Shown in pieces: positions 8,675 to 41,497 of a stretch of DNA of 64,000 nucleotides (position 1 is its first letter; each line of letters begins with the position of its first letter). A program made the position numbers and the translations under genes. The notes under the pieces are model-generated. The model was not told the DNA's origin. It saw nothing but the letters and a program-made list of their open reading frames with translations, and ran no database searches. This stretch comes from Thermococcus sp. MV5. Its GTDB lineage: Archaea; Methanobacteriota_B; Thermococci; Thermococcales; Thermococcaceae. The DNA is taken from contig NZ_SNUE01000001.1 of the NCBI RefSeq assembly GCF_012027425.1, positions 310,001 to 374,000 on the forward strand. Direction: 5' to 3'.

Positions 8675-9508
8675 TTAGAACTTCGTTATCCCCGGAAACC
8701 AGTATTTTCTGCCTTTTTTCTCTTTCTCTTCATCCCATTCATGGAGTATTTTAACAGCTTCGCTAGCAACTAGGGCAGCTTCTTTTTCACCCTCTTTTCC
8801 AAACTGATTGGTTATTCTATTAGCGAAAACTGCACAAACACAACCTGCCCTAAGCCCATAAATATTCGCTAGAGTATAAAGTGTTGCTGCTTCCATTTCA
8901 AAATTAGTAACCCTTGCTTGCCTTAAATCATCTATAAGATGTTTTGCAAAGCTTGGGAAGTAACCATTTAAACCAGGTCTTGCCTGACCAACATAAAAGC
9001 TGTCTGTAGAAGCTGTTATCCCCACATGATATCTAACACCTAAACTCTCAGCAGCTTCGATAAGAGCTAATGTTACTTCAAGATCAGCCGCAGCTGGATA
9101 CTCTATTCTAACATACTGTTTTGATGTCCCTTCCAGTCTAACGGCTGCTTTTGCTATTATTAAATCACCGATTTCTATGCCAGGTTGAATAGCCCCCGTA
9201 GAACCTACTCTTATAAATGTATCCGCTCCTATAGCAGCCAATTCTTCAATTGCTATAGCAGTAGATGGCCCACCAATTCCTGTGGAAGTAACGCTTATAG
9301 AAACTCCCTTGTATTTGCCTGTGTGAGTTCTATATTCTCTATGAAAAGCTATTTCCTTGGCTTCATCCCAAAGAGTACTTATATTAGGAACTCTCTCAGG
9401 ATCACCCGGAAGAAGGACATATCTAGCAACATCTCCAGGTTTACAAGCTATATGATATTGATACCCCTCTTCAGTTTGAGGCCTGTCTGCTGGCATGAAC
9501 TTCTTCAT
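8675..9508 (-). CDS. udp: Uridine phosphorylase (nucleoside phosphorylase family 1)
   Basis: The enzyme of about 277 residues phosphorolyses uridine, or a related nucleoside, to base plus ribose-1-phosphate in nucleoside salvage. Visible motifs are the phosphate-binding LLPGDPERVPNI near the start, REYRTHTGKYKGVSISVTSTGIGGPSTAIAIEEL, VGSTGAIQPGIEIGDLIIA, and the ribose-binding NFEMEAATLYTLA. FYVGQARPGLNGYF and other loops fit uridine phosphorylase better than hexameric purine phosphorylase, but specificity needs assay. The ATG at 9508 follows GGAGGTGAGGTGT. It is divergent from the threonine synthase gene. Confidence 0.9.
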   Translation of the reverse strand: MKKFMPADRPQTEEGYQYHIACKPGDVARYVLLPGDPERVPNISTLWDEAKEIAFHREYRTHTGKYKGVSISVTSTGIGGPSTAIAIEELAAIGADTFIRVGSTGAIQPGIEIGDLIIAKAAVRLEGTSKQYVRIEYPAAADLEVTLALIEAAESLGVRYHVGITASTDSFYVGQARPGLNGYFPSFAKHLIDDLRQARVTNFEMEAATLYTLANIYGLRAGCVCAVFANRITNQFGKEGEKEAALVASEAVKILHEWDEEKEKKGRKYWFPGITKF

Positions 9509-9580
9509 ACACCTCACCTCCAGAGTTATTTTAGAAAAGACCTATATAAATGAAACCCTTAATAATAAAGAGGTGATACT

Positions 9581-10627
9581 GTGTTAAAATGCCAAACGTG
9601 CGGAAGGATTTATAAGAACTTTAAGATCATATGTAAGTGCGGTGGAGTTCTAGATTATATCAGTGAAATTGGAAATAACTTTGATTCCCTACTCAAAAAA
9701 GAGTTCCTAGACGTTAGAAGATATCTAGAGTTTTTACCTGTAAAAGGAGGATTTCTACCAAAGTTAATACTCCCAATAACCCCAGTTGTGAAAAGAGAGA
9801 TTAATGGAATTCATGTTTTTTTCAAACTCGAATACCTTATGCCAAGTGGCTCTTTTAAAGATAGAGGTACTTATGTGACAATAGCAAAGTTAAAAGAGGC
9901 AGGAATTAAAGAAGTCACTTTAGATTCCTCAGGCAATGCTGCTTTAAGTTTAGCTCTATTTGGAAAAAGTGAAGGGATAAAAACTCACATCTTTATTCCA
10001 GCACATACGAGCGAAGGAAAAAAACAACTGCTCAAATTTCTTGGAGCAGAAGTGCATGAAATCCAAGGTTCACGGATGAAGGTACATGTAATGGCCAGAG
10101 AAGTCAAAAAAGGACTTTACATCTCCCACTGGTATAATCCGTATTTCGTTGAGGGAACTAAAGTGATAGCATATGAAACGTATGAACAAATAGGAAACGT
10201 TGATTATGTATTAACTCCCGTAGGCAGTGGCAGTCTTTTTTTAGGAGTTTATAAGGGATTTAAAGAACTAAAACTTCTTGAAAAAATCAAGATCCCAAAA
10301 ATGATAGCTGTCCAAGGAAAAGGTTATGAAAGTCTTTGTGAGAGGAGCAAGGAAAGAAGCAGTCTAGCAGAGGGGATAGCAATCCCTGAACCACCAAGAA
10401 AGAAGCAGATGACCAAAGTTTTGACAACAACCCACGGAACATGTGTTTCCGTTGGGGATAGAGAGATCAAAGAAGCACTTAGTGAATTAATCTCTATGGG
10501 ATTTCTTGTTGAACCAACTTCAGCAACAGTTTATGCAGGATTTAGGAAGCTTTTAAATGAGGAGTACTTTGAAAAGGGTTCTAACGTTTTAATGCCTCTA
10601 ACTGGATCTGGACTAAAAAACGTTTAA
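9581..10627 (+). CDS. thrC: Threonine synthase
   Basis: This PLP enzyme of fold type II converts O-phosphohomoserine to threonine. An N-terminal zinc ribbon (CQTCGRIYKNFKIICKCGG), common in archaeal threonine synthases, precedes the catalytic domain. The PLP lysine lies in SGSFKDRGTY and is followed by DSSGNAALSLALFG and the phosphate-binding VGSGSLFLGVYKGF. The 348-residue length is typical. It starts with GTG, and GAGGTGATACT is upstream. TATA element CCTATATAAATG is at about 9541-9552, giving a short leader. Its stop codon lies one base from the encoded CCA end of the convergent tRNA-Cys. Cysteate synthase is a possible alternative within the family but less likely. Confidence 0.88.
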   Translation: MLKCQTCGRIYKNFKIICKCGGVLDYISEIGNNFDSLLKKEFLDVRRYLEFLPVKGGFLPKLILPITPVVKREINGIHVFFKLEYLMPSGSFKDRGTYVTIAKLKEAGIKEVTLDSSGNAALSLALFGKSEGIKTHIFIPAHTSEGKKQLLKFLGAEVHEIQGSRMKVHVMAREVKKGLYISHWYNPYFVEGTKVIAYETYEQIGNVDYVLTPVGSGSLFLGVYKGFKELKLLEKIKIPKMIAVQGKGYESLCERSKERSSLAEGIAIPEPPRKKQMTKVLTTTHGTCVSVGDREIKEALSELISMGFLVEPTSATVYAGFRKLLNEEYFEKGSNVLMPLTGSGLKNV

Positions 10628-39909: not shown

Positions 39910-40086
39910 CTATCCTCTTTCTCTCGCTTTTTCTAATTCTTGAACTATTGTTCGAGTCAGGTTTTGAATGTTTTGAGCTGCATTTAATACTGTCTGCCTA
40001 ACTATTCGAATTACTATAAAAACAATTATCAGTACGATAGCTATCATCATCAAATATTCCATAGCCGCTTGAGCATTTCTTTTCAT
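39910..40086 (-). CDS. Class III signal-peptide (type IV pilin-like) mini-protein
   Basis: A 58-residue protein, below the usual length cut-off, begins MKRNAQAAMEYLMMIAIVLIIVFIVIRIVRQTV. The basic pentad followed by QAAMEYL and a 20-residue hydrophobic helix is the class III signal peptide (DUF361, QxSxEYxxL-like) of archaeal pilins cleaved by EppA/FlaK-type peptidases. The rest (LNAAQNIQNLTRTIVQELEKARERG) is a short amphipathic helix, so the mature protein is hardly more than the pilin core helix. GGGGG before the ATG overlaps the stop region of the gene upstream. The stop is adjacent to the TRAP permease stop. Confidence 0.8.
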   Translation of the reverse strand: MKRNAQAAMEYLMMIAIVLIIVFIVIRIVRQTVLNAAQNIQNLTRTIVQELEKARERG

Positions 40087-40088
40087 GT

Positions 40089-40232
40089 TTATCCCCCAAA
40101 TGCTTGAGCTATCTGCTTTGCCACGAAACCTGATGCAATAATAAAGCCAACTGCAACTGCACTAGTTATGATCACAAAATCCACTAATTTGTCCAATACA
40201 TACATTAATATCTTTTTCTCTTTTTCATCCAT
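40089..40232 (-). CDS. Small single-span membrane protein next to the pilin-like gene
   Basis: The 47-residue protein MDEKEKKILMYVLDKLVDFVIITSAVAVGFIIASGFVAKQIAQAFGG has one glycine/alanine-rich membrane helix. The ATG at 40232 has GGTGATTAGA upstream at the standard spacing; the longer frame to 40286 is not supported. It ends two bases before the class III signal-peptide gene, so the two form a compact operon and may form one small surface or membrane complex. I do not recognise the family. Confidence 0.65.
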   Translation of the reverse strand: MDEKEKKILMYVLDKLVDFVIITSAVAVGFIIASGFVAKQIAQAFGG

Positions 40233-40300
40233 TCTAATCACCATATAAAGAATAACTATCAAAGATCTTAATAAATGTTTAGCCAAAAAAGAAAAGATAG

Positions 40301-41497
40301 TTAGTAAAGCATAACTTCAAAACCAAGTTCGCTCAAAAGGTCCGCAAGTTCTTCACTATCCACATACACTAGCAGATGATGGTTACCAAGAGTTCCATCA
40401 ACGAAATCTTTTGCTTCTTCTATTTTAAGCTTTAATTGGGTTCTACATCTATGCTCACTCCTCTCTTGACCCAAAACTTCAACTCCTGCTACCACCGCCT
40501 TTCTTCCTCTAATTTTTAGTAAAGAGGCCTTCCCTTTTGGAAGATTTACTGCAACACCCACACCTTTTCCACTTTCAAAGTGTGATCTCAAAACATAGTT
40601 GGCAATTAGTGGAGCAGTACAGTGGGCCAGGATTATATGATTCTCTCCATAATCCGCTATGTTGCCCATGAAAGCCGGTTTATCAAAGAATCTCCTCACT
40701 ATAAGCATCCCAAATAGAGAATTTAGCTCTCCTTCACATGCGGCAGGAATTCCCTCTGCATTCAGCATTGCTAATGCCAAACAAGGAGTTGCATTAAGTT
40801 TGTTAAGCATTTCAAAGCATCCTATGGCAAATCCATCCAATTTGTAATCATCAATTATTCTCTTAAGAGCCACATATATTCTACCAGCTTTTACAAGATC
40901 TTCTCTTTGTGGCTCTTTAATCTCTTTAGCTTTTGCAATAATTTCCTCTACAGCCTTCCAGCCTTCAGCTTCAGTAGTTGCATCATAATACTCGTAGAAT
41001 TTTTTCAAACTTATATGAATGTAAGGAAGTCCGAATTTCTCATTTATCAGCCAAATCGAAGTTCTTCCTATAAGACCCAATCTAATGTTGAGGAATTTAT
41101 CAAGCATGTTTTTTATATCCTCATACCCTAAAAGGGCTGCTTTTAGTTCACTAATACTCTTCACAAGTGCTGTCGGTATTAGGTTGTCTCTAAAATATTC
41201 CCTAAGTTCAATAGCTGCAGCAATGGAGTTATTAAAAGAGTCTCCAAAAAGAATTATTGGCTTTCTGTAATAAACAAATTCTTTCAAAGCGTTTTCAGTC
41301 CCTCCTGTAAGGGGATAAATAACAATAATATCCACATCCTTAAAGTCTACCTCTCTAGTGTCTGATTTTGAAGATATAAAAGTACCCCCTTCTATTTCAA
41401 ATTCATCCACAAGTTTCATTAAAAACTTGGAAGCTTTTTCTTCAAAGGCCGTAGGGTCTGCTATTTCACTAATTCCAAACGCTACTCCTACTTTCAT
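40301..41497 (-). CDS. L-fucose/L-arabinose isomerase-like protein
   Basis: The 398-residue protein looks like the sugar isomerase FucI/AraA superfamily. It has an N-terminal Rossmann-like half (DFKDVDIIVIYPLTGGTENALKEFVYYRKPIILFG) and a C-terminal half with LDGFAIGCFEMLNKLNATPCLALAMLNAEGIPAACEGELNSLFGMLIVRRFFDKPAFMGNIADYGENHIILAHCTAP, matching the FucI active-site pattern C-E-G-D/E and H-C-x-A/S. It may isomerise an aldose or be a non-catalytic relative; no sugar genes adjoin. A second, longer member lies at 52394-53878. The SD is GGAGGTTGGTGAG. Confidence 0.65.
   Translation of the reverse strand: MKVGVAFGISEIADPTAFEEKASKFLMKLVDEFEIEGGTFISSKSDTREVDFKDVDIIVIYPLTGGTENALKEFVYYRKPIILFGDSFNNSIAAAIELREYFRDNLIPTALVKSISELKAALLGYEDIKNMLDKFLNIRLGLIGRTSIWLINEKFGLPYIHISLKKFYEYYDATTEAEGWKAVEEIIAKAKEIKEPQREDLVKAGRIYVALKRIIDDYKLDGFAIGCFEMLNKLNATPCLALAMLNAEGIPAACEGELNSLFGMLIVRRFFDKPAFMGNIADYGENHIILAHCTAPLIANYVLRSHFESGKGVGVAVNLPKGKASLLKIRGRKAVVAGVEVLGQERSEHRCRTQLKLKIEEAKDFVDGTLGNHHLLVYVDSEELADLLSELGFEVMLY

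What the first reader, a model, noticed from the sequence alone, without database searches (positions are those of the whole stretch)
39910..40232. Two tiny membrane proteins, one with a class III (pilin) signal peptide
A 58-residue protein begins KRNAQAAMEYL followed by a hydrophobic helix, the type IV pilin signature. It has almost nothing after the helix, and is coupled to a 47-residue single-span protein. Both are below common gene-calling limits. A pilin reduced to its core helix could be a minor pilin, a regulator of pilin assembly, or a membrane peptide.
Basis: partly seen in the sequence, partly recalled or inferred. Interest (0 to 1): 0.5.

Follow-up and report, generated by a model that had tools for sequence, protein, structure and literature searches.

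The report
Tiny pilin with a membrane partner
A heat-loving archaeon carries two tiny, evolutionarily conserved genes side by side: one looks like a miniature pilus subunit of a known kind, the other is an unclassified single-helix membrane peptide that travels with it and may help or control it.

Summary
The two small ORFs are real genes at exactly the stated coordinates. P1 (58 aa, minus strand 40086..39910) is a tiny class III signal-peptide protein: PF04021, 26.8 bits, cut-off 23.7. P2 (47 aa, 40232..40089) matches no family. The pair is present in 12 of 13 genomes of its genus and 5 of 7 of a second genus, always P2 then P1. Both are under purifying selection (pN/pS 0.15 and 0.16). P1 is more widespread: in 31 of 58 genomes read from a third genus it sits behind the same isomerase-like gene without P2. 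P2 was not found without P1. One genome lost both, apparently in one deletion, but keeps prepilin peptidase and pilus ATPase genes, so the pair is accessory. 'Almost nothing after the helix' is wrong: about 30 residues follow the membrane part, with an N-glycosylation sequon. Best reading: P1 is a peptidase-processed mini-pilin of the Thermococcales type IV pilus, like Methanococcus MMP1685/MMP1283 in kind; P2 is a lineage-specific, probably co-translated membrane partner. P1 is a new member of a known kind; the dedicated partner is the new part. Cleavage, filament entry and P2's function are inferred, not shown.

The parts
39910..40086 (-). P1: 58-aa class III signal-peptide protein (mini type IV pilin candidate); predicted cleavage A5|Q6, which would leave 53 aa
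   Evidence: ORF; PF04021 26.8 bits (cut-off 23.7); conservation; helix 2-57
40089..40232 (-). P2: 47-aa single-span membrane peptide, no family
   Evidence: no family; conservation; hydropathy maximum at residues 16-32; helix 3-46
40087..40097 (-). P2-P1 junction: GGGGGAT (ribosome-binding-like) inside the P2 end, 2-nt gap to the P1 ATG
   Evidence: gap 2-13 nt in 16 of 17 pairs; 29-nt overlap in G012
40269..40282 (-). Promoter-like element CTAAACATTTATTA (BRE/TATA-like)
   Evidence: TTTATTA invariant in 8 aligned leaders; TTTATTA in 11 of 12 and CTAAA[CG]ATTTATTA in 9 of 12 leaders of the genus; the full element is in none of the 5 leaders of the second genus
40237..40242 (-). GGTGAT ribosome-binding-like site of P2; GGTG invariant in 8 aligned leaders
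39955..39963 (-). N42-L43-T44 N-glycosylation sequon in the P1 tail
   Evidence: N42, T44 invariant in 10 rows; 8 of 8 distinct genus sequences carry a sequon in the tail, 2.7 expected from shuffles
40301..41497 (-). Upstream isomerase-like gene (398 aa; AraA central domain), synteny anchor of P1 across three genera
   Evidence: (PF24856, 26.2 bits, cut-off 24)

Best explanation
P1 is a stand-alone mini-pilin of the Thermococcales type IV pilus. It inserts by its class III signal, is cut before Gln6 (+1 Gln, +5 Glu, +6 Tyr) by the A24 prepilin peptidase (EppA-like), is probably N-glycosylated on its outward tail, and enters a pilus as a minor or condition-specific subunit made of little more than the core helix. 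P2 is a single-span partner encoded just upstream, present in two lineages only, that most likely pairs with the P1 helix in the membrane and stabilises it or times its processing or assembly. Shown by sequence: genes, conservation, signal, tail sequon, operon-like coupling, joint loss in one genome. Inferred: one transcript, cleavage, glycosylation, entry into a filament, P1-P2 contact.
For: PF04021 over cut-off. +1 Gln, +5 Glu and +6 Tyr in all 47 locus orthologues in which they could be read, of 48. Arc_PepC prepilin peptidase in 91 of 94 family genomes, including all 74 near-complete ones; the window genome's own copy has PF06819 and PF01478. T2SSE and T2SSF genes in the window's genome. 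Sequon in the tail in 8/8, 5/5 and 26/31 distinct sequences of three genera, against 2.7, 2.2 and 15.2 expected from shuffles. P2 in 17 of 94 family genomes, each beside P1. Purifying selection on both. Relatives in kind: MMP1685 (74 aa, major pilin, N-glycosylated) and MMP1283 (in the 67-76 aa class, essential for piliation) (PMC3875500, passages); small ~70-aa stand-alone pilins of Clade 1 T4P, which includes Thermococci (PMC4858521, section 9).
Against: No solved pilin is matched by sequence or by Foldseek (no hit). No NCBIfam match near its cut-off. The window copy has Asn at -2 and so misses the consensus [KRDE][GA].. quoted in PMC5517150; 18 of 47 locus orthologues lack a charged -2. No transcript, protein or filament data. 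P1 lies apart from the pilus genes found, and 27 of 58 genomes read in the third genus lack it at this locus. P2 has no known relative, so its role rests on coupling and helix character alone, and 31 genomes have P1 without P2 at the locus. The pair is deleted in one genome and P2 disturbed in another.
Confidence: 0.5

Rival explanations
1. P1 stays in the membrane as a hydrophobic-domain signal rather than a building block, and P2 is the protein it binds. The pair would couple pilus assembly to motility or adhesion, as proposed for PilA pilin H-domains in Haloferax volcanii, where pilins are thought to sequester a still unnamed inhibitor.
For: P1 is predicted as one helix; P2 is a single-span helix always encoded beside P1; the H. 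volcanii precedent is described in PMC4371748 (passages).
Against: The P1 tail is conserved and carries a sequon, more than an H-domain signal seems to need; P1 is kept without P2 in 31 genomes.
Confidence: 0.2
2. P1 is a major pilin used under some condition, forming thin filaments by itself, and P2 is its assembly chaperone.
For: Major pilins of Clade 1 are typically small stand-alone genes, often with paralogues (PMC4858521); a conserved promoter-like element in the genus.
Against: The genome has longer class III proteins (149 and 125 aa at G000:C4) that are equally possible candidates; the pair is lost in G007 and P2 is disturbed in G002.
Confidence: 0.15
3. The pair has nothing to do with pili: a membrane-active peptide pair such as a toxin-antitoxin or holin-like system.
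For: Two small hydrophobic proteins, coupled; P2 has no family; a weak PHROGs holin match for P1 (E 0.19).
Against: No PADLOC match, only chance-level PHROGs matches, no viral relative of P2 in one scan; syntenic inheritance; P1 is kept without P2 in 31 genomes.
Confidence: 0.08

Closest known systems
Methanococcus maripaludis MMP1685 / MMP1283 (class III, EppA-type small pilins; PMC3875500, passages)
   Same: Size class (67-76 aa there, 58 here), class III signal with +1 Gln and +5 Glu, N-glycosylation sequon, location apart from the main pilus genes.
   Different: P1 has +6 Tyr, which that paper says those pilins lack; P1 has a co-encoded membrane partner in two lineages; no experimental evidence for P1. 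No direct sequence comparison with these proteins was made.
Clade 1 type IV pili of methanococci, methanobacteria and Thermococci (PMC4858521, section 9)
   Same: Thermococci are in the clade; small stand-alone pilins with paralogues and an EppA peptidase are described.
   Different: The section read does not describe a coupled second small membrane protein.
Bacterial Flp (Tad) pilins
   Same: Small pilin of similar length, with Tyr at +6 (feature as reported in PMC3875500); that Flp pilins are little more than a helix is recalled.
   Different: Archaeal class III signal and archaeal peptidase; no sequence relation was tested.
PilA1-6 H-domain control of motility in Haloferax volcanii (PMC4371748, passages)
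   Same: A pilin hydrophobic domain acting inside the membrane is a precedent for a membrane partner.
   Different: The partner there is unidentified; no link to P2 was tested.

Membership tests
PF04021 class III signal peptide proteins | Score over the curated cut-off | tested here: met
   26.8 bits against 23.7
PF04021 class III signal peptide proteins | +1 Gln, +5 Glu, hydrophobic helix after the cut site | tested here: met
   Q6, E10 invariant in 10 rows and in 47 of 47 readable locus orthologues; KD maximum 3.29 at 13-29
Archaeal consensus [KRDE][GA][ALIFQMVED][ILMVTAS] quoted in PMC5517150 | Charged residue at -2 | tested here: not met
   Window copy has Asn4; 29 of 47 readable locus orthologues have Lys or Arg. 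Not filed as a member of this strict pattern.
Archaeal type IV pilin (Clade 1 T4P) | Cleavage by the prepilin peptidase | not testable with these tools
   Peptidase gene present in the genome; no assay
Archaeal type IV pilin (Clade 1 T4P) | Assembly ATPase and platform genes in the same genome | tested here: met
   T2SSE at G000:C4:184729 with two T2SSF at C4:180947 and 181767; a second set at C2. Which set, if any, serves P1 is not known.
Archaeal type IV pilin (Clade 1 T4P) | Incorporation into a filament | not testable with these tools
   No proteomics or imaging
Archaeal type IV pilin (Clade 1 T4P) | N-glycosylation sequon in the exposed part (common, not strictly defining) | tested here: met
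   8/8, 5/5, 26/31 distinct sequences of three genera; glycan itself untested
Flp (Tad) pilins | Homology to bacterial Flp pilins | not tested
   Only size and the +6 Tyr were compared, from a paper passage
Toxin-antitoxin / defence | Match to PADLOC models | tested here: not met
   No match for either protein at E <= 1
P2: any described family | Match to Pfam, NCBIfam, PADLOC, PHROGs | tested here: not met
   none; PHROGs best E 0.047

The most novel reading that the evidence does not exclude
P2 is a dedicated binding partner of an archaeal pilin core helix: a 47-residue membrane peptide that holds a mini-pilin in the membrane and releases it for assembly, so that the pair acts as a switch between membrane-held and assembled pilin.
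Probability: 0.15. Interest if true: 0.6.

Novelty: new variant of a known kind. Interest (0 to 1): 0.35.

Why it matters
Tiny stand-alone pilins are known in archaea, but as far as I know it is open how a near-bare helix is kept in the membrane and released for assembly. A strictly coupled one-helix partner in some lineages, with natural P1-only, pair-deleted and partner-disturbed genomes beside it, gives a simple system for testing this. P1 and P2 are also small enough to be easily overlooked.

Tried and rejected
Fold comparison: Foldseek of the P1 model against the PDB gave no hit at E <= 10; single helices carry little fold signal, so this decides nothing. Sequence profiles of P1 and P2 against solved structures gave only chance-like matches (best E 0.056 and 0.051).

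P2 as a diverged copy of P1: profile comparison aligned one column (probability 0.25%). Rejected.

P2 beyond Thermococcales: 115 genomes of the phylum gave the same 17, the G007 relic (E 0.027) and one weak second match with a stop in G004. The genome-contig scan gave 4 loci, all MAGs titled Thermococci, Thermococcales or Thermococcus. One viral scan gave none. Both scans rest on short peptide patterns and can miss relatives.

EppA by PF06847 was a poor probe (25 of 94 over cut-off), so PF06819 was used instead.

Defence and phage libraries: nothing usable.

Papers: eight searches listed nothing that describes this pair, judged by titles and abstract starts. Read in passages: PMC3875500, PMC4371748, PMC5517150, PMC9856176, and PMC10133366 and PMC8416519 (not used for the argument); PMC4858521 in passages and the whole of section 9.

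Full report
What is there. On the minus strand, P2 (40232..40089, 47 aa) is followed after 2 nt by P1 (40086..39910, 58 aa). P1 abuts, with no gap, the end of a convergent TRAP-type permease ORF (ends 39909; the name is mine, by eye). Upstream, an isomerase-like gene (41497..40301; AraA central domain) ends 68 nt before P2. In that gap TTTATTA and a GGTG site are invariant in 8 aligned leaders of the genus. TTTATTA is present in 11 of 12 leaders of the genus and the longer CTAAA[CG]ATTTATTA in 9 of 12; the second genus lacks the longer form (0 of 5). So in this genus the pair most likely has its own promoter (inference).

Are they genes? Yes. P1 passes the PF04021 cut-off. Besides the window's own copies, P1 orthologues (68-88% identity) and P2 orthologues (72-100%) occur in 11 of the 12 other genus genomes, each time adjacent. 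Within the genus pN/pS is 0.15 and 0.16 in the coding frame; the lowest other frame gives 0.27 and 0.28, the rest 0.54 to 4.52. An earlier pairwise count gave 0.15 and 0.16 too.

Distribution. Genus labels g1-g6 are the tool's. With a profile, P2 is found in 17 of 94 genomes of the family: 12 of 13 in g1 and 5 of 7 in g6. P1-like class III proteins at any locus are found in 94 of 94, so paralogues are universal there. To follow the P1 locus itself I searched the end of the isomerase-like protein: 82 of 94 genomes matched. Reading at least about 0.8 kb downstream in all 82 (loci) with HMMs at E < 1e-10 gave: both in 17, P1 without P2 in 31 (all g3, of 58 g3 genomes read), neither in 34, P2 alone in none. 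The HMMs were built from rows found in the same loci. In the 31, the best P2 score is E 2.7. G030 matched P1 only from model position 10; G112 had a weak partial P1 match and was counted as lacking it. In g3, P1 starts 37-118 nt after the isomerase stop, G030 left out. In g6, P1 lies 492-1344 nt after it, yet P2 and P1 stay together. P1 is thus more widespread than P2; whether P2 was added in g1 and g6 or lost in g3 I did not decide.

Natural breaks. In G007 what looks like one deletion joins the start of P2 (codon about 15) to P1 (codon about 30) out of frame, with the TTTATTA region kept. G007 still has the peptidase, T2SSE and T2SSF genes, so the machine is kept without the pair. In G002 two ORFs lie between the isomerase and P2, one with a transposase DDE domain (PF01609, 29.4 bits, cut-off 23), and the first eight residues of P2 are replaced. 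In G012, P2 reads on and overlaps P1 by 29 nt.

Anatomy. P1: short N terminus, predicted cut A5|Q6, hydropathy peak 13-29, then an amphipathic tail (moment 1.77 for residues 29-50). In the genus rows the tail block N35-T44 does not vary, as little as the signal region; N42-x-T44 is invariant also in g6, where the middle residue differs. Sequons occur in the tail of 8 of 8 (g1), 5 of 5 (g6) and 26 of 31 (g3) distinct sequences; shuffled tails give 2.7, 2.2 and 15.2. Over the 48 locus orthologues, +1 Gln, +5 Glu and +6 Tyr hold in all 47 that could be read (G030 not); -2 is Lys or Arg in 29 of 47 and Asn, Pro, Ser or Thr in 18. AlphaFold2, from five sequences each, gives one helix for each protein: P1 2-57, pLDDT 92.6; P2 3-46, pLDDT 90.2. 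P2 has a charged, amphipathic start and a membrane helix with regularly spaced small residues (A25, G29, A33), of which G29 and A33 are invariant in 10 rows. This spacing suits helix packing (inference).

The machine. The window's genome has a 375-aa A24 peptidase with the Arc_PepC domain, and 9 nt upstream of it another tiny class III protein of 55 aa (L063:9130-9297). T2SSE and T2SSF genes lie in two clusters, plus one T2SSE match below cut-off; the C4 cluster, one ATPase with two T2SSF genes, fits the Clade 1 description of an ATPase with two TadC components in PMC4858521 (section 9). The assignment is mine.

Comparison. PMC3875500 (passages) reports M. maripaludis MMP1685, 74 aa, as major pilin and N-glycosylated, and MMP0528, MMP0903 and MMP1283 at 67-76 aa, of which MMP1283 is essential for piliation and the other two are not. 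PMC4858521 says small stand-alone pilins, often with paralogues, are typical of this clade. P1 fits this kind. It fails the consensus with a charged -2 residue quoted in PMC5517150 (passage), because it has Asn there. PMC4371748 (passages) describes control of swimming by the pilin hydrophobic domain in H. volcanii through a proposed, unnamed inhibitor; this is the precedent for the regulator rival.

Mechanism. I think P1 is a mini-pilin made by the common pilus machine and P2 its membrane companion. The link of P1 to pili is good but indirect. That P2 acts on P1 rests only on strict coupling, joint loss in one genome and helix character. I put 0.5 on the whole statement and about 0.8 on P1 being a pilin-type peptidase substrate.

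Verdict. P1 is an ordinary member of a known kind. The P2-P1 unit is undescribed as far as the eight paper searches listed show, and worth a simple deletion test.

Noticed in passing
L063:9130-9297 and 9307-10434 (G000:C6): A second tiny class III protein (55 aa) ends 9 nt upstream of the A24 prepilin peptidase gene, apparently in one operon.
   Followed up: partly
L121 (G007), about 1740-1890: Apparent single deletion joins P2 codon ~15 to P1 codon ~30 out of frame; a natural loss of the pair in a near-complete genome.
   Followed up: yes
L195 (G002), 533-1407: Two ORFs, one with a transposase DDE domain, inserted between the isomerase-like gene and P2, replacing the usual leader and first eight codons of P2.
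   Followed up: partly
L028, L029, L031, L092, L098, L100: In other Thermococcales, two or three tiny class III proteins lie in tandem, in all six of these loci near a gene for a 186-212-aa protein that looks alike by eye; possible major pilins.
   Followed up: no
L065:7251-16207 (G000:C3): A CetZ tubulin gene is followed by one PF04021 protein (201 aa), ORFs with pilin-like starts by eye (two tested had no Pfam family) and a DUF2101 membrane protein; CetZ-pili association in Thermococcales is already published (PMC9856176, abstract and passages).
   Followed up: partly
L010 (G008), L055 (G009): The convergent TRAP-type permease gene next to P1 looks broken in the stretch read in G008, and no such ORF was found there in G009, while P1-P2 stay intact.
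   Followed up: no
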